A stretch of DNA of 64,000 nt from Microbacterium atlanticum. Its GTDB lineage: Bacteria; Actinomycetota; Actinomycetes; Actinomycetales; Microbacteriaceae. Below the pieces are notes generated by a model that made no database searches, was not told the DNA's origin, and was given only the letters and a program-made list of their open reading frames with translations. Every line of letters begins with the position of its first letter. Positions within the stretch are counted from its first letter, which is position 1. The translations under genes were made by a program, and so were the position numbers. The stretch is from the NCBI RefSeq assembly GCF_015277815.1, contig NZ_CP063813.1:558001-622000 (forward strand), in the 5' to 3' direction. Positions 6,395 through 16,378 of this stretch are shown here, in pieces.

Positions 6395-8611
6395 TCACGG
6401 CGCGTCCGCGCCGCCCGCCTCGAGCAGGTCCGCCGTGGCCCGGAGGATGGCGACGATCGCCGCTGTCCGGACCTCGGCCGCGCTGCCGCGGCCGTCGGTG
6501 TGCGCGGCCTTGGGCCCGGCGATCGTCGGGGCGTCGCGCAGCGAGGTCAGCAGCGCGCGGCCGCCGAGGTCCTCGGCCGCGGAGAGCAGCGGCCGCTGCT
6601 CGTAGTCGTCGTCGATGATGTCGGAGACGGCCCGGACGAACTCGCGGTAGCTGAGGTCGGGGCTCTTCCCGAGGACGGTGAGCGCCGCCGTGGTGAACAC
6701 GCCGTGGCCGTTCGTCTCGAGCGCGACCTGGTCCGGCTGGCACGCGCTGACCAGCACCTCCCGGTTCGCCTCGTGCGGCGTGGGTGGCTCGGCGGCCCGG
6801 TCGGTCTCCACTTGGACCACCCGCGCCCACGCGGCCCGCCGGAACGGGTCCGACAGCGCGGCGGCGCGCTGGGCGCGGTAGGCGTCCTCCTCCGCGGCAT
6901 CCAGCACCGTCATGCGGGGCTTCGCTCCCGCCGGGATCCGCTTCTGGGCGAACTGCGACCGCGTGAGCCCGCGGTTGACGGTTCCGGAGTGGCACGAGTC
7001 GAAGAACAGCGACACCGCGACACCGTCCGGGATGGCGTCCCAGATCGCCCCGAGGTCGTCGTCGACGATGAGGCTGCCGTCCCGGAAGTCCACCGGGCAC
7101 AGCGCCTCGTCGCTCGGGCCGAAGGCATCGGTCTCGTCGCCGTCGAGGTCGGGGACGAACGTGCCGTGGCCCGCGAACTGGATGGCCACGACGTCGCCGT
7201 CGCGCGCCGCCGACACCTTGTCGAGCATCGCCCGGAGGATCACGTCGCGCGTCGCGTCGGCGTTGCGGATGGACTCCACCTCGAACCCTGCGCCGCGGAA
7301 GGCCTCGCCCCACGCCTCCGCGTCGGCGACGCAGCCGTTCAGGGGGTCCTTCGGGTAGGCGTCGATGCCGATGCACAGCGCCAGCTTGCGCGGCGTCGCG
7401 CCCCGCACGCCGGCCGGCTCGGGGCGCGGCGGCCGTACCGGCTCGACGGCGACGTCGCGTCCCCGGCTCGGGAAGACCGTCAGCCGTTCGGGCTCGTCGC
7501 TGTCGGGCACGCCGAGCACGCGCCGCGCGAGGCTCATCATCGTCTCGACGTCGTTGTCGAACGCGCCGTGCGAGGTGGCCTGCGTGCGGCTGCGGCGGCC
7601 GCGCGCCACCGGACCGAGCACCAGGCGGGCGGGGTCGTCGCCGAGGTAGCCCATCGTGCGACCGGCGCGGCGCAGGTGCTCCTCCAGACCCAGGATCTTG
7701 GCGTCCCGCTCCGCCTCGAACGCGCGCGAGACGAGGTACAGCAGCGACTTGCGGTAGACGCCGCCGGTGTTGTCGCGCTTCTCGTGGGTCTCGTCCATCG
7801 TGAAGATCGCGAGGTCCTTGATCCGGCCGGTCTCTGCCAGGGGCAGCAGCGTCGCCTCGAAGGTGTCCACGCGCACCGCGGGGGCGAGGAAGGTGACGCT
7901 GGCGACGTGGTCCACCGCATCGTCGCCGTCGAAGAGCCGCGGCACGAAGTGCGAATGGTAGATCGACCCGGCGCTGTGCCCGGCGATGTGCAGCTCGACG
8001 GCCCCCTGGTTCGCCGTCATGTACTCGCGCAGCGCTGCGGCGAGCACGTCGGCCCCGCCCTGCGTCCCGTCGGCGAGCGCGGGCAGGCACGCCGCCGCCG
8101 AGTCGAGCTTCATGTCGTCCCAGAACTTCCGCCCGCCGAGGATGCGTGCCGCGGCCTCCACCGCCCGGTCGGTGAGATCGGTGAACCCGCGCGACCCCGT
8201 CGCCCGCCCCGAGAGCACGTCGGCGAGCGTCGTCATCAGCCCGCTCTCCCACACGAGGTGGATCGGGTACACGCCGTTCTTCTTCCACCACGCGGTCTGG
8301 TGGTGCGCCGTCCGCAGGCCCGCCGCCTTGTCGGTGAGCCCGCCGTGCGCCCAGATCAGCACCGGCACCGGAGCGGGCACGTCGCCCGCCGGCGCCTTCT
8401 TCACCTGCTGCTCGACGAACGCCGCGAGGTCCTGCTCGATCATCCGCCGCACGTCATCGGCGGTCGTCGCGAACGCGTCCACGCTCGCCGGTCGAGCGGT
8501 CGACGTCGCGTCCAGCTTGCCGTCGGCGGTGTGCACGACGTGCTTGCGCAGGGCGGCGAGGTCGGCGGGGCGGAGGTCCGCGCCGCGGGCGGCGGTGGTC
8601 GTGTCGGCCAT
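6395..8611 (-). CDS. Alpha/beta-hydrolase-caspase (peptidase C14) fusion protein
   Basis: Predicted cytoplasmic effector, 738 residues, no signal peptide. The N-terminal half looks like an alpha/beta-hydrolase: an oxyanion-type HGG (WAHGGL, about residue 88) and the nucleophile elbow GHSAG (about residue 211). The C-terminal half is a metacaspase/caspase domain. It begins LALCIGIDAYP and has the catalytic His in FAGHG (about residue 480) and catalytic Cys in FDSCHSG (about residue 538). Start ATG 8611 (MADTTTAAR) has AGGA 11 bases upstream; the frame upstream of it overlaps the CHAT gene and is not coding. It is the last gene of the STAND-STAND-CHAT-caspase operon, 50 bases after the CHAT gene. 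A protease or lipase effector triggered by its neighbours is an inference. Confidence 0.9.
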   Translation of the reverse strand: MADTTTAARGADLRPADLAALRKHVVHTADGKLDATSTARPASVDAFATTADDVRRMIEQDLAAFVEQQVKKAPAGDVPAPVPVLIWAHGGLTDKAAGLRTAHHQTAWWKKNGVYPIHLVWESGLMTTLADVLSGRATGSRGFTDLTDRAVEAAARILGGRKFWDDMKLDSAAACLPALADGTQGGADVLAAALREYMTANQGAVELHIAGHSAGSIYHSHFVPRLFDGDDAVDHVASVTFLAPAVRVDTFEATLLPLAETGRIKDLAIFTMDETHEKRDNTGGVYRKSLLYLVSRAFEAERDAKILGLEEHLRRAGRTMGYLGDDPARLVLGPVARGRRSRTQATSHGAFDNDVETMMSLARRVLGVPDSDEPERLTVFPSRGRDVAVEPVRPPRPEPAGVRGATPRKLALCIGIDAYPKDPLNGCVADAEAWGEAFRGAGFEVESIRNADATRDVILRAMLDKVSAARDGDVVAIQFAGHGTFVPDLDGDETDAFGPSDEALCPVDFRDGSLIVDDDLGAIWDAIPDGVAVSLFFDSCHSGTVNRGLTRSQFAQKRIPAGAKPRMTVLDAAEEDAYRAQRAAALSDPFRRAAWARVVQVETDRAAEPPTPHEANREVLVSACQPDQVALETNGHGVFTTAALTVLGKSPDLSYREFVRAVSDIIDDDYEQRPLLSAAEDLGGRALLTSLRDAPTIAGPKAAHTDGRGSAAEVRTAAIVAILRATADLLEAGGADAP

Positions 8612-8661
8612 GGTGTGACGTCCTGTCTGGTTCGAAGTGGCGGTGGGTGGTGCGGCGCCCG

Positions 8662-10758
8662 TCAGCGGGGCTCGAGTCTCGCGCGGGGGTCGGCGAAGAC
8701 GGTGAAGGCGAGCGAGGTCAGGTCGCCCGCCTCGCGGGCGGCGCGGCGCGCGGCGAGCACGGCGTCGCCGAGCGTGGCGTGCTCGCCGAGCGTCTGCTCG
8801 TAGAAGGTGCGCACGAAGGCCGCGGTGACGTCGTCGCGCACGGCCCACGAGCAGCCGATGAAGACGCCGACGCCGCCGCGCAGGAACGCCTCGGCGAAGC
8901 CGCCGAGTCCGGTCGCGCCCGAGCGCAGGCGGCCCACGTCGCACGCGCTGAGGAAGACGAAGGGAGCGGATGCCGCGGCGGCCGCGTCCTCGAGCTCCGG
9001 CAGGTCGCGCCGCGCGTCGGAGTCGGTGTAGGCGGCCGAGCCGTCGTCCTCCTCCGACCAGGTCGCGAACGCGATCTCCTGGCCCGGCGGCGCCGCGTCC
9101 CGCCAGCGGCCGTGCCCGGCGAAGTGGAGCAGGTCGAATCCGCTCGCGATCTGCTCCCGCAGCTGCGCCGGATCGGCCGCCGAGCGCGGCGCGGCCGCGA
9201 GCAGGGTGGCCAGCGCCGCCACCTCCTCGCCCGCCCGCGGCAGCCGGTAGTCCGGATTGACGTATTCGGGCGCGATCGCCAGCACCCGCGTCGCGTCGAC
9301 GGGCACGACGGTCGGCCGAGGCGTCCCGTACATCCAGCGCATGAGTCCCAGGTCGCCGAGGAAGTACCGGTCCGGGTCGGGTCGCTGCTTCCCGACCGGC
9401 ACGAGGTGCACGATCTCCCACGGGATGTCGAGCTCGCCCGAGGTCTGCAGCACCACCTGCGAGAGCCGGCGGCGACGGCGCCACAGCAGCTCGTTGATCT
9501 CGTCGCCCAGGAGCTCACCGGCGATGCGGGCGCCGAGCGAGCGCACCTCGCGCCGCACCGTCTCGGCGGCCTCGTCGGGATCGTCCTCGGCCTCGGCCAC
9601 GAACTCCCGGCGGATCCTCGCGAGCTCCGCGTACACGCCCTCCACGTACGCCGCCTTGTCGTCGAGGCGGACGACGTGCCGCTTCACCGTCCGCCCGATC
9701 TTCGCCGTGATGACGAGGTCGGACCTCCCGCGCGAGATGGTCTCGTCGACGGCGATCGTGGGCAGGTCGGCGATCTCTCGGGGCGGGACGGCGACGGATG
9801 CCGCGACCAGCCGCAGGTCCGGCTCCTGCGGCTGCAACTCCTCATCGGCCGGCCGGATCGCGGCGCTCACCGCGAGGACGGCCAGCGGTGTGACCACCGG
9901 AGGCTGCGTGAAGGTCACCGTGATGTGGCCGCGGCCCGGCTCCTCGCCGATGAGGCGGAAGACCAGCCGGCGCGGCTCCTCGCCGGGCGCGGGCAGCGTC
10001 GTGGTCACGGCCGCCGGGGTGCCGTCGGCCGGCGCGAAGCCTCGCAGCTGCACGCCGACCTCGATCTCGCGGGTGGGGTCGAAGCGGGCGACCGCCTTCT
10101 TGCGCGACGTGCCCTTCGTCGGCGTGAGGTCGCTCACCGACAGGCGGACGACGGCCTCGAACACCACGCCCTCGACGACCGCGGACGGCACCTCGGCGTC
10201 GACGAACGCCGGCACCGGGGTGGCGCCGTCCAGTGCGCCGGCCGTGCCGCCGCTGGGCTCTGCATCCGGCGCGGGCTCGGGCATCGCCGGTGGCGGGGGC
10301 GGTGCCGCGGGCGCCGGCGGGGGAGGCGGTGCCGACTCTGCGAGCGGCGGCTCGGCCATGACGTCCGGTCCACCCCCCATCCCCATGCCGCCGCCCGCGA
10401 CTTCGTCTTCGAGCTCGCGCATCGCGGCCTCGTCCGTGCCCGCCACCACGGTCAGGTGCAGCACCTCGCCGGGTGCCACGTTCAGGTGGGCGGCGAATCC
10501 GTCGTCGCGCCGCCGCAGGACGACCCACTGGGCGATCCCGTCCCGCACCACGATCGCGGCGTACCGCAGCCCTTCGGGCGCTCGCACGAGCAGGGTCGCC
10601 GTGCCGCCGGCGAGTCCGCGGACCACCGCGTCGGCCACGGCGGTGATCCCGCGCCGGTCGGGTACGGCATCCGTGATCGCGTGCACGTCCGCCACGACGG
10701 CGTCGGCGTCGCCCGCGACCTCGACGATGCCCCGTGGCGCCTCGGGAACCAGAGCCAT
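8662..10758 (-). CDS. CHAT-domain protease
   Basis: CHAT domains are caspase-like cysteine proteases (clan CD). This 698-residue protein has its CHAT domain in the last 250 residues: catalytic His in LLHFAGHGRW (about residue 546) and catalytic Cys in VFLSACDVG (about residue 604). The N-terminus (about 1-150) is a compact unrecognised domain. A Pro/Ala-rich linker follows at about 150-190, then a beta-rich middle region. I see no TPR repeats inside it, unlike many CHAT proteins. Start ATG 10758 has GAGGGG just upstream; an upstream ATG at 10866 would need about 36 more residues with no support. It is third in the operon, 162 bases after the second STAND ATPase. The natural substrate is unknown; the caspase protein encoded next is an obvious candidate. 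Confidence 0.9.
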   Translation of the reverse strand: MALVPEAPRGIVEVAGDADAVVADVHAITDAVPDRRGITAVADAVVRGLAGGTATLLVRAPEGLRYAAIVVRDGIAQWVVLRRRDDGFAAHLNVAPGEVLHLTVVAGTDEAAMRELEDEVAGGGMGMGGGPDVMAEPPLAESAPPPPPAPAAPPPPPAMPEPAPDAEPSGGTAGALDGATPVPAFVDAEVPSAVVEGVVFEAVVRLSVSDLTPTKGTSRKKAVARFDPTREIEVGVQLRGFAPADGTPAAVTTTLPAPGEEPRRLVFRLIGEEPGRGHITVTFTQPPVVTPLAVLAVSAAIRPADEELQPQEPDLRLVAASVAVPPREIADLPTIAVDETISRGRSDLVITAKIGRTVKRHVVRLDDKAAYVEGVYAELARIRREFVAEAEDDPDEAAETVRREVRSLGARIAGELLGDEINELLWRRRRRLSQVVLQTSGELDIPWEIVHLVPVGKQRPDPDRYFLGDLGLMRWMYGTPRPTVVPVDATRVLAIAPEYVNPDYRLPRAGEEVAALATLLAAAPRSAADPAQLREQIASGFDLLHFAGHGRWRDAAPPGQEIAFATWSEEDDGSAAYTDSDARRDLPELEDAAAAASAPFVFLSACDVGRLRSGATGLGGFAEAFLRGGVGVFIGCSWAVRDDVTAAFVRTFYEQTLGEHATLGDAVLAARRAAREAGDLTSLAFTVFADPRARLEPR

Positions 10759-10920
10759 CTCGACCCCCTCGCTCCGGCGCCCCCCGAGCGCCGTCACCCT
10801 GCGATCCGAGGAGCGCAGTCGGTGCACAGCATATGAGCACGCTCCTTGCCGCACCAGAGTCCGCAAGTCCCGCGGCTGATACGCCAGGACAGCGGATGCC
10901 TCCCCTGCGCGACCGCGCGG

Positions 10921-13554
10921 CTACCAGGAGCGGAGCTTGTCGGCGACGGACTCGTATTCGGCCGCCGGCAGCGCCAGCTGCACCGCCTCAGCGACCGTCA
11001 GTTCGGCGCCCGCCGCTTCACCGGCGGCCACGCTCTGCGGATCGTGGCCGCGGAGGATCTCGAGGTAGGGCGTGTGGACGGTGAACGCCTGCACGTCGAA
11101 GATGCCGATCCGGCGGCGGATCTCGCCGGCGGCCACCGCGAGCGCAGCCGCCCGCCACGCCTCGCCGTGCGCGGCGGCGACGGCGCACACGCCCTCCAGC
11201 CCGTAGGCGACACCCTCCTCGTAGTGCAGTCCGATCGACAGCAGCAGCGTGTGCACGAACTCGCGCTCGGCCTCCTCGATGCGGCCCAGCTCGAAGTTGA
11301 GACGGGAGCGGAGGTTCCCCGCGACCGACGTCGTGAACAGGTCGCCGCCGGCCTCGGCCACCGACGTCGCATGGTCGAAGTGCGCCAGCGCGTCCTCCGT
11401 GTCGCCCTTCACCCACGCCAGGCGCCCGAGCGACACATCCGTGATGGCCTCGGCCCACGTGTTGCCGCGCCCCCGCAGCCTCTCGACCGCCTGGTGGAGC
11501 TCGGCCTCGGCCTTGTCGGTGTCGAGGAGTGAGAACTGCACGCGCGCCGTGGCGCGTGCCGCGAGCGCCATCGCCGCGGCATCCTCGTCCCCGGTCTCGG
11601 TGAACAGCCGCACGCACTCGCCGAGGCCCGCGACCACCTGCTCGCTGGGGCGCTGCCACATCTCGCCCCACAGCGCGAAGAACCACGCGACGGCGCGCGT
11701 GTGCGGGGTGATCGGCTGCTCGTGCTGCTTCTCGAGCAGCTCCAGCATCCACACCCGCACCTCGGCGAAGAAGCCCGAGATCCACCAGTAGATCAGGAGG
11801 CTCCACGCGAAATCGCCCGCGTCGTCGAGCCTGTCGGTGTAGATGAGGTGCCGCACGGCGGCACGCAGGTTCGGCAGGTCCAGCCCGAGCCGGGCGACCG
11901 CTTCGGCCTGCCCCGGTCCGCCGAGGTCCGGCGCGACCCGCGCGACCATCGTTCGGTAGTAGTCGGCGTGGGCGCGGCGCACCTCGTCGGCGTCGCCGCG
12001 CTGCTTGAGGCGTCCGATCGCGTACTCGCGCACGATGGCCAGGAGCGAGAAGACGCGCCGCCCGCCGATCTCACCCTGCTTGACCAGCGAGCCGTCGACG
12101 AGCGAGGCCAGTGCCTCCAGCGCCTGCCCGTCCCACGAGCGTCCTGCGCCGATCGACTCGACGGCCTCGAGGGTGAACCGCGTCGCGAAGACGCCGAGGT
12201 CCTCCAGCAGACCGCGCTGCGACTCCGGGAGCAGGCTCACGCTCCAGTCGATCGTCGCCCGCATCGTGCGGTGCCGCTCAGGGAGGTCGCGGACGGCTGC
12301 GGTCAGCAGCGGCAGGCTCTGCTCCAGGCGCTCCGCGATCTCGGCGGGGTTCAGGATCCGCACCTTCGCCGCCGCGAGCTCGATCGCCAGCGGCAGCCCC
12401 TCCAGGCGCCGGCAGATGTCGGCGAGGTCGCGCGCATTGTCGGGGGTGACGTCGAAGTGGGGGTCGATCGCCCGCGCCCGGTCGACGAACAGCGACACCG
12501 CCGCCGACCTGGTGGCGCGGTCGAGGCTCGCCGGGCGGTCGCCCGCGGGCGTCGTCAGCGGCGGCACCTCGTACACGCGCTCGCCGCGGATGCGCAGCAC
12601 GATGCGGCTGGTGACGAGGAAGGTCGCGGCCGGTGCGACGGTGTACAGGCGCACCAGGACGGGCGCGGCATCCACGATCTGCTCGAAGTTGTCGAGCACG
12701 ATCAGCACGCGCCGGCCCTCCAGCGCCACGGCGATGCGCTCCTCGAGGGCCGCCTCGCCGTTGTCGCGGATGCCCAGGTAGTAGGCGATCGTGGGCAGCA
12801 GCAGCCCGGACTCCAGGACGCCCTCCAGGAGCACGAAGTACACCCCGTCCGGGAACATGTCGGCGCACGCGAGGGATGCCTCGATCGCGAGCCGGCTCTT
12901 GCCGATGCCGCCGGGCCCGATGAGGCTCACGACGCGGTCGGTGCCGCGCGCCAGGAGCGTGCGCACCGCCTCGATGTCGTCCTCGCGGCCGATCGTGGTC
13001 GTGTAGGGCACCGGCACCCGGCCCACGAGGTTCGGGCCCGACTCCGGCTCGGCTCGCACCGGCGCGCGGGATTGGTCGAAGCGTTCGGCCAGGAGCATGG
13101 CGAGGTCGCCGGCGACCTGGTCTTCGAGGTCTTGGGCGGAGCGGAAGTGGAGGTAGGCGGCGGTGTCGTCGGCCTGGATGCGGGAGATGAGCTCTTTGAG
13201 GCGGTCGTCGCGGGTGTCGGTGTCTTTGACGTAGATGAGCTTGGGCATCTCGCGGGGGGCGAGGTTGTATTCGTCTTCGAGTCCGGAGACCTGTTCGTCG
13301 GGGGCGACCCAGCCGTAGCTGTCGCCGTAGATGCCGACGAACACGTCGCTCTGGGCGAGGTAGGAGCGGTACAGGTCGCGGGGCGGGTGGGGCCGTGCGC
13401 CGAGTTCGAACATCACCGGTGCCAGGCGCAGCCGTTCGATCGCCGACCGCACTGCTTCGCGCTCTTCCGCGAGCTCGCGCAGCGTCGAGCTCACGAACAC
13501 CCGGATCCGCTGGTCGGGCGTGCGGATCACCGGGTGGTGCTGCATCCCCGTCAC
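10921..13554 (-). CDS. DUF4062-STAND (NB-ARC type) ATPase with C-terminal helical repeats, copy 2
   Basis: NLR-like regulator of about 877 residues. Residues 5-160 are a DUF4062 domain (RVFVSSTLREL; SDVFVGIYGDSYGW). Then comes the STAND ATPase, with Walker A GPGGIGKSRLA (about residue 215), Walker B RVLIVLDNFEQI and the GLPLAIEL motif. The last 450 residues are alpha-helical, TPR/MalT-like, the usual ligand-sensing part. The GTG at 13554 is chosen because it overlaps the stop of the upstream paralogue (GTGA) and because VTGM aligns with the paralogue's MTGV; ATG 13545 is the alternative. Its first about 155 residues are identical to the paralogue; the rest is only moderately similar. No DNA-binding domain is seen, so it is not an AfsR/LuxR-type regulator. 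Confidence 0.9.
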   Translation of the reverse strand: MTGMQHHPVIRTPDQRIRVFVSSTLRELAEEREAVRSAIERLRLAPVMFELGARPHPPRDLYRSYLAQSDVFVGIYGDSYGWVAPDEQVSGLEDEYNLAPREMPKLIYVKDTDTRDDRLKELISRIQADDTAAYLHFRSAQDLEDQVAGDLAMLLAERFDQSRAPVRAEPESGPNLVGRVPVPYTTTIGREDDIEAVRTLLARGTDRVVSLIGPGGIGKSRLAIEASLACADMFPDGVYFVLLEGVLESGLLLPTIAYYLGIRDNGEAALEERIAVALEGRRVLIVLDNFEQIVDAAPVLVRLYTVAPAATFLVTSRIVLRIRGERVYEVPPLTTPAGDRPASLDRATRSAAVSLFVDRARAIDPHFDVTPDNARDLADICRRLEGLPLAIELAAAKVRILNPAEIAERLEQSLPLLTAAVRDLPERHRTMRATIDWSVSLLPESQRGLLEDLGVFATRFTLEAVESIGAGRSWDGQALEALASLVDGSLVKQGEIGGRRVFSLLAIVREYAIGRLKQRGDADEVRRAHADYYRTMVARVAPDLGGPGQAEAVARLGLDLPNLRAAVRHLIYTDRLDDAGDFAWSLLIYWWISGFFAEVRVWMLELLEKQHEQPITPHTRAVAWFFALWGEMWQRPSEQVVAGLGECVRLFTETGDEDAAAMALAARATARVQFSLLDTDKAEAELHQAVERLRGRGNTWAEAITDVSLGRLAWVKGDTEDALAHFDHATSVAEAGGDLFTTSVAGNLRSRLNFELGRIEEAEREFVHTLLLSIGLHYEEGVAYGLEGVCAVAAAHGEAWRAAALAVAAGEIRRRIGIFDVQAFTVHTPYLEILRGHDPQSVAAGEAAGAELTVAEAVQLALPAAEYESVADKLRSW
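13066..13530. repeat. 465-bp near-identical segment, copy A (DUF4062 coding region)
   Basis: Direct repeat of 15684-16148, differing at a single base (CAG versus CAA, synonymous Gln). It spans the DUF4062 domain of the second STAND gene and stops sharply at both ends. Coding strand uses GAA, CAA and AAA codons more than the rest of the gene. Confidence 0.95.
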
Positions 13555-16175
13555 CACGCGGGCACCCTCTCGCGCACCTCGGCGTCGGCGTCGGCCAGCG
13601 CGAGGCCGATGGCATCGACGAGGCTCATCTCCGCGCCTGCGCGCTCGCCGGCCGCGACGCTCTCGGGCTCCGCCGCGCGCAGCGCGGCGAGCGGCTCTTC
13701 GTGCACGGCGAAGCCGGCGATGTCGTACACCCCCGTCGTCGCGCGGATGGTCGCGGCGACGGCGGACAGGGCGCCCGCCCGCCATCCGTCGCCGTGGACC
13801 GCCGCGAGGGCGCACATGCCCTCGATGCCGTACGTCGCGCCGTCCACGAAGTGCAGGCGCACCGACAGGGTCAGCGTGAGCAGGAACTCCTGCTCGGCGG
13901 CCTCCCGCTCGCCCAGCATGAACCGCAGCCGCGCCCGGTTGTTGCCGGCGACGACGCGGGTGAAGGCGTCGTCCGCCTCGTCGGCGATCGCGACTGCGCG
14001 ATCGAAGTGCTCGAGGGCGTGCGGGATGTCGCGGGTCAGCACTCCGAGCTGCCCCAGCGCGACCTCTGCGAGGGACTCGGCCCAGCTGTCCCCCAGGGCG
14101 TGCAGCGTCGTGATGGCGTCGCCGAGTTCGGCGCGCACGGTCGCCGGGTCGACGTCGGGGAACTGCATCCGCGTCGATGCCCGCGCCGCCAGCGCCATCG
14201 CCGCCGACCGCTCGTCGTCCGACTCGAGGAAGAGCCGCACCGACTCGCCCAGCCCGTCGACCACCTGGTCGCTGGGACGCTGCCACATCTCCGCCCACAG
14301 CGGGAAGAACGCGGCGATCGCCCGGGTACGGGCGCTCAGCGGCAGGCCCTTGCCGCGGAGTTCGAGCATCCACAGGCTGACGTCGGCGAAGTATCCGCTG
14401 ATCCACCAGTAGGGCAGGAGGGTCCACGCGAAGTCGGCGGCGTCGTCGAGCCGGTCGGCGTGCACGAGATGCCGGGCCGCCGCGCGCAGGTTCGACACCT
14501 CCAGGCCGAGCTTCGCCACCGCCGCGATCTGCTCGGACCCTCGCAGTCGCGGCGCGATCCGGTGCACCAGCGACAGATAGTAGTCGGCGTGGGCGTTGCG
14601 CATCTCCTCCGCGCCACCCTGGGATTCGAGGATCCCCACGGCGTACTCGCGGACGATGGCCAGCAGCGAGAAGACCGTCCGGCCGCCGGACTCGAGGCGC
14701 TGCACCAGCGACGCGTCGATGAGGGCGGCGAGCGTCTCGATCGCCTGTTCGCCCCACGAGCGGCCGGCGCCCACCGCCTCGACCGCCTCGAGGGTGAACT
14801 TCGCCGCGAAGACGCCGAGGTCTTCCAGCATCGCGTGCTGCTCGGCGCCCAGCAGCCCCACGCTCCATTCGATCGTCGCGCGCATCGTGCGGTGCCGGTC
14901 GGGCAGGTCCCGCACGGAGGTGGACAGCAGGGGGAGGCTCTGCTCGAGCCGCTCGGCGACGTCATGCGGCGACAGCAGCCGGATCTTCGCCGCCACGAGC
15001 TCGATCGCCAGCGGCAGCCCTTCCAGGCGGCGGCAGATCTCGATGACGTCTCCCGCGTTGTCGGCGGTCAGCGCGAAGCCGGGCATCGCAGCTGCGGCGC
15101 GCTCGGCGAAGAGCACGCACGCGGCGGACGCGCGCGCCTGGCCGAGTGTCGCGGGCGACTCCTCCGACGGCGTCGCGAGGGCCTCGACCTCGAACACCCG
15201 CTCGCCGCGGATGCGCAGCACCGTCCTGCTGGTGACGAGGAAGAAGGCCCGTGGCGCAAGCGTGTAGAGGCGCACCAGGACCGGCGCCTCGTCGACGATC
15301 TGCTCGAAGTTGTCGAGCACGATCAGCACGTGCCGGTCGGCCAGCGCCTGCGCGATGCGCTCCTCCAGGACGGCGGCGCCGGTGTCGCGGATGCCGAGGA
15401 CGTATGCGATCGTCGGCAGCAGCAGCCCCGGTTCGAGCACCCCTTCCAGCGGCACGAAGTACACGCCGTCGGGGAAGAGATCGGTGTTCGCGTGGGCGGC
15501 CTCGATCGCCAGCCGGCTCTTTCCGATGCCGCCGGGCCCGATGAGGCTCACCACTCGCTGCTGCCCGCCGGCCAGCAGCGCGCGGATCTCGGCGAGCTCC
15601 CCGTCACGGCCGATGGTCTCGGTGTACGGAACGGGCACCCGCGCGGTCAGCGGTGTGGTGGAGACGCTCACGGGCTCGGAGCGGCGGGATTGGTCGAAGC
15701 GTTCGGCCAGGAGCATGGCGAGGTCGCCGGCGACTTGGTCTTCGAGGTCTTGGGCGGAGCGGAAGTGGAGGTAGGCGGCGGTGTCGTCGGCCTGGATGCG
15801 GGAGATGAGCTCTTTGAGGCGGTCGTCGCGGGTGTCGGTGTCTTTGACGTAGATGAGCTTGGGCATCTCGCGGGGGGCGAGGTTGTATTCGTCTTCGAGT
15901 CCGGAGACCTGTTCGTCGGGGGCGACCCAGCCGTAGCTGTCGCCGTAGATGCCGACGAACACGTCGCTCTGGGCGAGGTAGGAGCGGTACAGGTCGCGGG
16001 GCGGGTGGGGCCGTGCGCCGAGTTCGAACATCACCGGTGCCAGGCGCAGCCGTTCGATCGCCGACCGCACTGCTTCGCGCTCTTCCGCGAGCTCGCGCAG
16101 CGTCGAGCTCACGAACACCCGGATCCGCTGGTCGGGCGTGCGGATCACGGGGTGTCCCACCCCAGTCATGTGCAT
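13551..16175 (-). CDS. DUF4062-STAND (NB-ARC type) ATPase with C-terminal helical repeats, copy 1
   Basis: First gene of the operon, 874 residues, same plan as its downstream neighbour: DUF4062 (about residues 8-165), STAND ATPase with Walker A GPGGIGKSRLA (about residue 215), Walker B HVLIVLDNFEQI and GLPLAIEL, then a long helical-repeat region. STAND ATPases sit in an ADP-bound off state until the C-terminal region senses a ligand, then oligomerise and activate the N-terminal domain. Start ATG 16175 (MHMTGVG) is preceded by GGGGCC; ATG 16169 and 16205 are alternatives. It is transcribed from a well-formed promoter about 130 bases upstream and is translationally coupled to the next gene by a 4-base overlap. 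Confidence 0.9.
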   Translation of the reverse strand: MHMTGVGHPVIRTPDQRIRVFVSSTLRELAEEREAVRSAIERLRLAPVMFELGARPHPPRDLYRSYLAQSDVFVGIYGDSYGWVAPDEQVSGLEDEYNLAPREMPKLIYVKDTDTRDDRLKELISRIQADDTAAYLHFRSAQDLEDQVAGDLAMLLAERFDQSRRSEPVSVSTTPLTARVPVPYTETIGRDGELAEIRALLAGGQQRVVSLIGPGGIGKSRLAIEAAHANTDLFPDGVYFVPLEGVLEPGLLLPTIAYVLGIRDTGAAVLEERIAQALADRHVLIVLDNFEQIVDEAPVLVRLYTLAPRAFFLVTSRTVLRIRGERVFEVEALATPSEESPATLGQARASAACVLFAERAAAAMPGFALTADNAGDVIEICRRLEGLPLAIELVAAKIRLLSPHDVAERLEQSLPLLSTSVRDLPDRHRTMRATIEWSVGLLGAEQHAMLEDLGVFAAKFTLEAVEAVGAGRSWGEQAIETLAALIDASLVQRLESGGRTVFSLLAIVREYAVGILESQGGAEEMRNAHADYYLSLVHRIAPRLRGSEQIAAVAKLGLEVSNLRAAARHLVHADRLDDAADFAWTLLPYWWISGYFADVSLWMLELRGKGLPLSARTRAIAAFFPLWAEMWQRPSDQVVDGLGESVRLFLESDDERSAAMALAARASTRMQFPDVDPATVRAELGDAITTLHALGDSWAESLAEVALGQLGVLTRDIPHALEHFDRAVAIADEADDAFTRVVAGNNRARLRFMLGEREAAEQEFLLTLTLSVRLHFVDGATYGIEGMCALAAVHGDGWRAGALSAVAATIRATTGVYDIAGFAVHEEPLAALRAAEPESVAAGERAGAEMSLVDAIGLALADADAEVRERVPAW
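15684..16148. repeat. 465-bp near-identical segment, copy B (DUF4062 coding region)
   Basis: Partner of 13066-13530, 464 of 465 bases identical, in the same orientation, inside the first STAND gene. Flanking sequence on both sides diverges at once. Confidence 0.95.
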
Positions 16176-16311
16176 ATATTGGCCCCATCCGGGCGAATGC
16201 GCCATGGATCGGCCGTCGCGCTTCGCAAAACGTTCCGGGTGTGCGCGTGCAGGCGGTCGTCTGAGACCCGCTGCAGGGCTGCGGCGGGGCGCTCGGAGGC
16301 GGCCGTCGCCG

Positions 16312-16340
16312 CTTATACCGCAGCATCCGGAACTTTTCAA
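16312..16340 (-). promoter_or_regulatory. Sigma-70-type promoter of the STAND-CHAT-caspase operon
   Basis: On the minus strand: -35 TTGAAA (16340-16335), 17-base spacer, -10 TATAAG (16317-16312). Transcription should start near 16305, giving a leader of about 130 bases before the first STAND gene. The match is unusually good for this genome. Its -35 is only 9 bases from the -35 of the rpoB promoter on the other strand. Confidence 0.75.
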
Positions 16341-16349
16341 GAATCCGAG

Positions 16350-16378
16350 TGGACACGGCGCGTCATCCGATGTATAAT
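16350..16378 (+). promoter_or_regulatory. rpoBC promoter
   Basis: -35 TGGACA (16350-16355), 17-base spacer, consensus -10 TATAAT (16373-16378). Predicted start is near 16385, giving a leader of about 158 bases before rpoB. The rest of 16176-16542 shows no further gene. Confidence 0.8.

What the first reader, a model, noticed from the sequence alone, without database searches (positions are those of the whole stretch)
6395..16340. NLR-like STAND-STAND-CHAT-caspase operon between pxp and rpoB
Seen: one minus-strand run from a good promoter encodes two DUF4062-STAND ATPases with helical C-termini, a CHAT protease (His/Cys pair intact) and a caspase fused to an alpha/beta-hydrolase (His/Cys pair intact). 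Gaps are -4, 162 and 50 bases. Known: STAND ATPases with C-terminal sensors act as bacterial NLR-type immune sensors, and CHAT and caspase domains are clan-CD proteases used as effectors or processors in several prokaryotic death and defence systems. Inference: a sensor pair triggers a two-step protease cascade, with the hydrolase half as a possible killing activity. I know of no described system with this exact set. No pore-forming partner such as a gasdermin is seen.
Basis: partly seen in the sequence, partly recalled or inferred. Interest (0 to 1): 0.9.

Follow-up and report, generated by a model that had tools for sequence, protein, structure and literature searches.

The report
Two bacterial immune modules, one slot
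Between two housekeeping genes, an actinobacterium carries twin NLR-like sensors that probably bear their own NAD-destroying domain, beside a separable pair of likely self-destruct proteases, and the twins keep copying that domain from each other while their other parts stay different.

Summary
The four genes, gaps (-4, 162, 50) and CHAT and caspase His/Cys pairs are real. The reading as one NLR-to-protease cascade is only partly supported. (1) DUF4062 is a TIR-like NADase family (2026 preprint), so each STAND is probably a complete sensor-effector. 46 of 60 genomes of the genus with this STAND lack the caspase. (2) CHAT plus hydrolase-caspase is separable: three genomes at least 99% complete carry it with no DUF4062 match; four single ORFs fuse the two; in 79 hydrolase-caspase loci the neighbour is CHAT (22), a zincin-like protein (46), neither (11), never both. 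(3) Both modules use a variable slot beside rpoB. STAND and CHAT-caspase are adjacent, in fixed order, in 12 of 17 caspase-bearing genomes of the genus; the full four-gene set is in 7. A link is possible, one origin is not excluded, and a conserved promoter-like block precedes CHAT. (4) Not noticed before: the two NADase domains are 99.6% identical in DNA, the rest 70.5%. This domain-limited gene conversion is seen in 12 of 31 scored adjacent pairs. Best reading: a composite immune locus. Functions are inferred; structure prediction could not be run.

The parts
13551..16205 (-). STAND1: DUF4062 (TIR-like NADase family) - NB-ARC ATPase - C-terminal region; start codon uncertain (ATG 16205 or a later one near 16160)
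15684..16148 (-). 465-nt tract of STAND1 nearly identical to STAND2 (NADase domain), gene-conversion tract
   Evidence: limits read; 99.6% over 468 aligned nt versus 70.5% over the remaining 2088 nt; bins
10921..13554 (-). STAND2: DUF4062 - NB-ARC - TPR-like; GTG start overlaps the STAND1 stop by 4
13066..13530 (-). matching 465-nt tract in STAND2
10820..10882 (-). conserved block upstream of CHAT (GTATCA ... CTCTGGTGCGG ... TATGCT), promoter-like; weak -35
   Evidence: aligned in 12 joint loci (L088 diverged) and in 11
8662..10758 (-). CHAT-domain cysteine protease: fast-evolving N-terminus, Pro-rich linker, DUF7363, CHAT (His549/Cys606)
6395..8611 (-). alpha/beta-hydrolase-like half (GHSAG, Ser213) fused to a caspase/metacaspase-like domain (His482/Cys540)
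16312..16340 (-). TTGAAA-17-TATAAG promoter-like site, divergent from rpoB; a like site is present also in 14 of 15 loci without the modules
   Evidence: sequence

Best explanation
This is a composite immune locus in a variable chromosomal slot (pxpBC-rpoB): two modules that can each live alone. Module 1 is a pair of self-contained NLRs. The helical/TPR-like C-terminus senses a trigger (inferred), NB-ARC drives oligomerisation (general knowledge of STAND ATPases), and the N-terminal DUF4062 domains, brought together, hydrolyse NAD+ and stop or kill the infected cell (shown for another bacterial DUF4062 protein, inferred here). Recurrent gene conversion keeps the two NADase domains the same while the rest differs, which would let two sensors feed one shared, perhaps mixed, NADase assembly (conversion shown from sequence, purpose inferred). 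Module 2 is a two-protease death module: the partner protease (CHAT here, a zincin-like protein elsewhere) and the hydrolase-caspase act in sequence, probably CHAT first, and the hydrolase and caspase then damage the cell (partnership shown by gene order and fusions; direction, target and immune role inferred).
For: DUF4062 match 3.2e-21; phmmer match to the solved DUF4062 protein KpSwz, PDB 10wc, E 6e-4; Walker-type motifs (G223, G225, G226, G228, K229, D298-E301 invariant in 53 rows). Separability: among 39 loci of the genus in the rpoB tree, 12 joint, 9 STAND only, 3 CHAT-caspase only, 15 neither; in the 20 drawn without regard to content, 15 neither, 5 STAND only, 0 CHAT-caspase. G498, G295 and G045 have CHAT-caspase and no DUF4062 match. 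Conversion: 12 of 31 scored adjacent pairs in the genus have NADase DNA identity of 94% or more against 69.6-71.4% for the rest; the NADase tree pairs most converted paralogues by genome, the rest-tree by gene. Module 2: of 79 loci, 22 CHAT partner, 46 zincin-like partner (39 with HExxH..HExxA), none with both; CHAT and hydrolase-caspase in one ORF in L114, L115, L127 and, in reverse order, L109. Amidase_2 in front of hydrolase-caspase in 2 of 5 non-actinobacterial forms scanned (L130, L136; not L142, L166, L171) and the motif HxHHTWxP in 29 of 79, which hints at an envelope-damaging role.
Against: No activity was tested. In PMC13174449 three of four human DUF4062-NACHT proteins (NWD1, NWD2, NPHP3) showed no NADase activity, so a DUF4062-STAND protein need not be an enzyme. 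The Glu that aligns with the only Glu of the KpSwz stretch (E104) is replaced in 4 of 52 well-aligned rows (A in two, Q in two), while E106 is kept in 52 of 52, so which Glu is catalytic is not settled. Fixed order and strand in 12 of 12 joint loci, and enrichment of STAND among caspase carriers (14 of 17 versus 46 of 230, Fisher 2.6e-7, not corrected for kinship), argue for some link. Conversion may be confined to the NADase part only because the rest is too diverged to recombine. 11 of 79 hydrolase-caspase loci have no convincing protease partner (10 none, plus L154 with 43 bits). The zincin-like protein is seen only weakly by Pfam (2 of 8, best E 0.032). The 79 loci are the best-scoring of 542, not a random draw. 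An immune role of module 2 rests on its neighbourhood and on analogies.
Confidence: 0.55

Rival explanations
1. One integrated cascade: the activated STAND pair switches on CHAT, by contact or through an NAD-derived messenger, CHAT processes the hydrolase-caspase, and that kills the cell.
For: STAND and CHAT-caspase adjacent, same strand, same order in 12 of 17 caspase-bearing genomes of the genus. STAND enriched among caspase carriers. Recent NADase conversion in 6 of 7 pairs beside CHAT-caspase against 6 of 24 other pairs (Fisher 0.007, kinship not corrected). TIR-to-caspase signalling is in print (title of Rousset 2025 seen in the reference list of PMC13174449; that it is type IV Thoeris is recalled).
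Against: Both modules occur alone. 11 of the 12 joint loci fall in one part of the rpoB tree, so a single juxtaposition kept by descent is possible. Five of the 12 joint loci have a single STAND, so the pair is not required. Promoter-like block before CHAT. The DUF4062 enzymes shown active in PMC13174449 (KpSwz, TEP1) made ADP-ribose and nicotinamide, and TEP1 no further derivative.
Confidence: 0.27
2. CHAT and hydrolase-caspase are not immune but an envelope or cell-lysis programme (stress, development, competition) that happens to sit beside immune genes.
For: Amidase_2 in some relatives; CHAT-CHASE2 and FecR-PASTA genes upstream in L136; flanking genes scanned beside L042 and L043 are ordinary (methyltransferase, TetR, TIM-barrel).
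Against: Patchy distribution in the genus (17 of 247) and residence in a variable slot together with NLR-like genes.
Confidence: 0.13
3. STAND proteins are transcription regulators of the AfsR/LuxR kind for the protease pair.
For: Weak NCBIfam similarity to AfsR (STAND1 45 bits against a cut-off of 1430).
Against: No DNA-binding domain among the Pfam matches; N-terminus is DUF4062; STAND mostly occurs without the caspase (46 of 60).
Confidence: 0.04

Closest known systems
Swarozyc (DUF4062 NADase anti-phage protein; KpSwz)
   Same: DUF4062 TIR-like domain at the N-terminus; phmmer hit to PDB 10wc, E 6e-4
   Different: KpSwz senses phage portal with a helix-turn-helix/winged auxiliary domain (PMC13174449); here NB-ARC plus helical/TPR-like region, often in tandem
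Human TEP1 / NWD1 / NWD2 / NPHP3 architecture (DUF4062 + NACHT)
   Same: DUF4062 next to a STAND-type ATPase (PMC13174449)
   Different: bacterial NB-ARC with TPR-like C-terminus; linked in some species to a protease pair; of the four human proteins only TEP1 was an active NADase
Avs / bNACHT / CARD-NLR bacterial NLR systems (recalled; papers seen as listings only)
   Same: STAND ATPase with C-terminal sensor and effector domain
   Different: effector is a DUF4062 domain; NADase domains homogenised between tandem copies
Type III CRISPR CHAT proteases (TPR-CHAT Craspase, seen in listings; SAVED-CHAT to caspase cascade, recalled, not found)
   Same: CHAT protease, possibly upstream of a caspase
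   Different: no SAVED domain among Pfam matches; CHAT carries DUF7363; caspase fused to a hydrolase-like half
Caspase plus alpha/beta-hydrolase pairs of VMAP ternary systems (Kaur 2020, PMC7159879, passages)
   Same: a caspase domain there always has a neighbouring alpha/beta-hydrolase gene
   Different: here fused in one protein, with a CHAT or zincin-like partner and no MoxR-vWA next to it
Canu and nuclease-protease pairs (Tuck 2025, PMC12799240, abstract and section 8)
   Same: protease-activated module attached to different sensors
   Different: no nuclease; two proteases plus a hydrolase
Amidase_2-metacaspase proteins (Asplund-Samuelsson 2012, PMC3501461, passages)
   Same: same domain pairing as the Gram-negative relatives found here
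   Different: four sequences reported (one with a GDSL lipase domain); no partner protease mentioned in the passages I saw

Membership tests
STAND / NLR-like ATPase | NB-ARC or NACHT P-loop with Walker A and sensor-like C-terminal repeats | tested here: met
   NB-ARC above cut-off in both, TPR_12 below cut-off in STAND2 only; GxGGxGK invariant in 53 rows
DUF4062 TIR-like NADase (Swarozyc) | DUF4062 domain | tested here: met
   (3.2e-21 and 3.4e-21)
DUF4062 TIR-like NADase (Swarozyc) | catalytic Glu | tested here: inconclusive
   E104 present in both window genes and in 48 of 52 well-aligned rows; A or Q in 4; E106 in 52 of 52
DUF4062 TIR-like NADase (Swarozyc) | portal-binding helix-turn-helix/winged auxiliary domain | tested here: not met
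   the rest is NB-ARC and helical/TPR-like; no winged-helix family among the Pfam matches
DUF4062 TIR-like NADase (Swarozyc) | NADase activity and phage defence | not testable with these tools
   needs experiment
CHAT protease | CHAT domain with His/Cys dyad | tested here: met
SAVED-CHAT effector | SAVED domain | tested here: not met
   no SAVED family among Pfam matches; PADLOC SAVED_CHAT match covers only residues 538-671, in the CHAT part
Caspase / metacaspase (C14) | C14 domain with His/Cys dyad | tested here: met
EACC1-associated caspase | NCBIfam caspase_w_EACC1 cut-off (140 bits) | tested here: not met
   19.8 bits
VMAP ternary system | adjacent VMAP, MoxR and vWA genes | tested here: not met
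   the four genes lie directly between pxpBC and rpoB in the window; the rest of the genome was not searched for these genes
Type IV Thoeris (TIR plus caspase-like) | TIR product activates the caspase-like protease | not testable with these tools
   recalled; only a reference title was seen

The most novel reading that the evidence does not exclude
A bacterial counterpart of plant TIR-NLR signalling: two NLRs with one shared, gene-conversion-matched TIR-like NADase domain form a mixed NADase assembly whose NAD product or surface switches on a CHAT protease, which unlocks a caspase fused to an alpha/beta hydrolase. The hydrolase-caspase half is an interchangeable death unit that evolution has paired with either a CHAT or a zincin activator across phyla.
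Probability: 0.2. Interest if true: 0.87.

Novelty: new variant of a known kind. Interest (0 to 1): 0.62.

Why it matters
It gives three directly testable points. Tandem bacterial NLR-like genes appear to homogenise their N-terminal killing domain by gene conversion while the rest diverges, a natural experiment on whether such domains must match to co-assemble. The hydrolase-caspase family, in several phyla, stands beside one of two unrelated kinds of protease, which points to a general two-protease death module. The locus also shows a self-contained NLR and a protease module side by side in one slot, a possible step in building a cascade.

Tried and rejected
Four-gene obligate system: rejected, because both modules occur alone and the full four are in 7 of 17 caspase-bearing genomes of the genus. 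'Good promoter' as operon evidence: rejected, a like site is present in 14 of 15 loci with neither module. A hairpin or operator in the STAND2-CHAT gap: an inverted repeat fitted a pattern in some loci but not in all, and no pair count was made. A small gene between rpoB and STAND in several congeners was looked at as a possible regulator; it reads as a small secreted protein on the other strand and the block is absent from the window. The rpoB tree shows the joint state to be clustered and does not decide between one and several origins. A PDB search with the CHAT profile gave only three weak matches outside the protease part. Paper searches for the combination gave no paper that I recognised as describing CHAT or zincin plus hydrolase-caspase modules, or domain-limited conversion in DUF4062 STAND genes; most hits were seen as listings only, and the library holds open-licence papers only.
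Full report
Observation. The window (G000:C1:558001-622000, one 3.71-Mb contig) has four minus-strand genes between pxpBC and rpoB, as described. Lengths and gaps are exact. Pfam gives DUF4062 + NB-ARC for both STAND proteins, with TPR_12 below its cut-off in the second; CHAT + DUF7363; and Peptidase_C14. PADLOC has no match for the STANDs and only domain-level matches for CHAT and caspase. The hydrolase half is recognised by GHSAG, an AHGG motif and an invariant His348, with only weak Pfam support (DUF900 in 5 of 48 sequences). Catalytic residues of CHAT and caspase are invariant in 19 and 22 sequences from the genus and family, window included.

What the STAND proteins are. A 2026 preprint (PMC13174449; I read parts 1 and 2 of 6 and passages) reports that DUF4062 is a TIR-like NADase, active in an anti-phage protein (KpSwz) and in human TEP1, where it sits beside a NACHT ATPase; NWD1, NWD2 and NPHP3, built alike, were inactive in the same assay. 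The window domain matches KpSwz (PDB 10wc) by phmmer at E 6e-4. In that alignment E104 of STAND1 lines up with the only Glu of the corresponding KpSwz stretch. E104 is Glu in 48 of 52 well-aligned STAND rows, Ala in two and Gln in two, while E106 is kept in all 52. Each STAND therefore most likely carries its own effector, not shown.

Separate modules. In 247 genomes of the genus, 17 have the hydrolase-caspase at E 1e-20 or better and 60 the STAND at E 1e-100 or better, the window's own genome included in both. By the two lists 14 have both, 3 the caspase only and 46 the STAND only. STAND next to CHAT-caspase holds in 12 of the 17: both STAND genes in 7 (window, L078, L082, L084, L085, L086, L087), one STAND in 5 (L079, L080, L081, L083 of the STAND2 type, L088 of the STAND1 type). 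Fisher for co-occurrence is 2.6e-7 but ignores kinship. STAND matches at E 0.001 were found in 111 of 249, many of them over the NB-ARC part only.

The slot. Among the 39 loci in the rpoB tree, 12 are joint, 9 STAND only (one to four copies), 3 CHAT-caspase only and 15 have neither. Of the 15, eight have pxpBC near rpoB (one, L075, with a 43-codon STAND fragment) and seven have no pxpBC match there. 20 loci were drawn without regard to content (15 neither, 5 STAND only, 0 CHAT-caspase); the others were picked because they carry one of the genes. Two further CHAT-caspase pairs (L092, L093) show no pxp or rpoB match in the 20 kb fetched. Of 10 genomes with hydrolase-caspase but no STAND beside it, 6 have no DUF4062 match: G498, G295 and G045 (99-100% complete, CHAT type), G411 (72% complete, CHAT type), G078 and G193 (zincin type). 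On the rpoB tree the joint state needs 4 changes, shuffled mean 10.4; 11 of 12 joint loci lie in one region, so one origin is not excluded. Caspase identity to the window is 80% in L078 but 59% in L085, while STAND2 is 86-87% in both, and the rpoB tree puts L085 and L086 nearest the window while the caspase tree puts L078 and L079 there; this fits cassette replacement beside STAND2. The caspase and CHAT trees agree in outline, with long branches flagged. The STAND2-CHAT gap holds a conserved block with a TATGCT hexamer (L088 diverged), so CHAT may have its own start.

Domain-limited gene conversion. In the window the NADase parts of STAND1 and STAND2 are 99.6% identical over 468 nt, the remaining 2088 nt 70.5%. 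The same holds in L078, L082, L084, L085 and L086 (94.4-99.4 against 69.6-71.4%), but not in L087 (79.9 against 71.5), so in 6 of 7 pairs beside CHAT-caspase. Away from CHAT-caspase it appears in L097, L177, L180, L181, L182 and L183, 6 of 24 pairs (one of the 24, L188, is in a genome with CHAT-caspase elsewhere). Together 12 of 31 scored adjacent pairs in the genus; in all 31 the NADase part was the more alike, and the other 19 lie at 72-85%. In the NADase tree the window, L078, L082, L085, L086, L094 and L097 pairs each join their own genome's partner, and L084's pair falls with L083; in the rest-tree STAND1 and STAND2 form separate groups. Tracts run from about nt 21 to about nt 450-480 (to about 404 in L086; patchy in L084) and end in the linker, the least similar stretch. 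The place where conversion stops may therefore reflect only where homology ends; selection for matching NADase domains is an inference. Kaur et al. (PMC8195603, passages) note that effector-associated domains within a genome tend to be closer to each other than to those of other genomes, a possible parallel.

The two-protease module. With profiles of the partners (over 40 bits, within 3 kb), 22 loci have CHAT and 46 a zincin-like protein (39 of 46 with HExxH..HExxA), none both, 10 neither; a further CHAT call, L154, is only 43 bits and I do not count it. L136, counted as neither, has a CHAT-CHASE2 gene some 2.6 kb upstream. Cryobacterium loci of the zincin type also carry a second, small caspase. 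Pfam sees the zincin only weakly (Peptidase_M4 in 2 of 8, best E 0.032). CHAT and hydrolase-caspase are one ORF in L114, L115 and, in reverse order, L109 (Pfam) and in L127 (profiles); the CHAT motif patterns were not found in L109. STAND genes of this kind were next to the pair only in eight Microbacterium records (L098-L103, L106, L107); two other STAND-profile hits (L134, L167) do not cover the DUF4062 part. Amidase_2 stands in front in 2 of 5 non-actinobacterial forms scanned, and HxHHTWxP is in 29 of 79; Asplund-Samuelsson et al. noted Amidase_2 in four prokaryotic caspases (PMC3501461, passages). Kaur et al. 2020 (PMC7159879, passages) report that caspases in VMAP systems always neighbour an alpha/beta hydrolase. 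Protease-activated modules shared among immune systems are known for nucleases (PMC12799240, abstract and section 8).

Mechanism. I take the locus as two immune modules in one slot (0.55): STAND pair = sensor plus NADase; CHAT plus hydrolase-caspase = protease pair that unlocks a lytic or proteolytic killer. The integrated cascade remains open (0.27): order is fixed in 12 of 12 joint loci, and recent conversion is commoner in pairs beside CHAT-caspase (6 of 7) than elsewhere (6 of 24; Fisher 0.007, not corrected for kinship). The corrections made on checking (four-gene set in 7, Amidase_2 in 2 of 5, inactive human DUF4062-NACHT proteins) pull in both directions and I left the odds as they were.

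Novelty. Parts are known kinds (DUF4062 NADase, STAND, CHAT, caspase); the tandem DUF4062-NB-ARC pair with converted NADase domain and the CHAT-or-zincin plus hydrolase-caspase module did not turn up in the paper searches made, which cover open-licence papers only.

Noticed in passing
window 16312-16378: rpoB promoter-like site (TGGACA-17-TATAAT, +) and a divergent site (TTGAAA-17-TATAAG, -) lie back to back; a divergent site like it is kept in 14 of 15 loci that have neither module.
   Followed up: partly
L078, L082, L083, L085, L088 between rpoB and STAND (read); L081, L084, L086 (similar by blastn): An extra block of about 500 bp holds a small secreted-looking protein gene on the rpoB strand; the gap is short, without this block, in the window, L079, L080, L087, L096.
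   Followed up: partly
L097 7640 and 10252; L048 6628 and 9338: Both copies of a tandem STAND pair carry Q (L097) or A (L048) at the Glu that aligns with the KpSwz Glu; in L097 the two NADase domains are 98.5% identical, so conversion may have spread the change.
   Followed up: no
L109 6420-12200: Hydrolase-caspase and DUF7363-CHAT in one 1927-aa ORF in reverse order; CHAT His and Cys motif patterns not found by regex, possibly an inactive CHAT.
   Followed up: no
L136 2151-7182: CHAT-CHASE2 protein and FecR-PASTA protein (Pfam) and a small caspase (profile hit) stand upstream of an Amidase_2-hydrolase-caspase.
   Followed up: no
L058 4077-6711: Middle STAND copy of a three-gene array is split between two reading frames; left as is.
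   Followed up: no
L088 12717-17352: 4.6 kb of other sequence between the caspase and pxpBC in one joint locus.
   Followed up: no
L075 1533-1661: A 43-codon STAND1-like fragment next to rpoB in a congener without an intact STAND there, perhaps a relic of loss.
   Followed up: no
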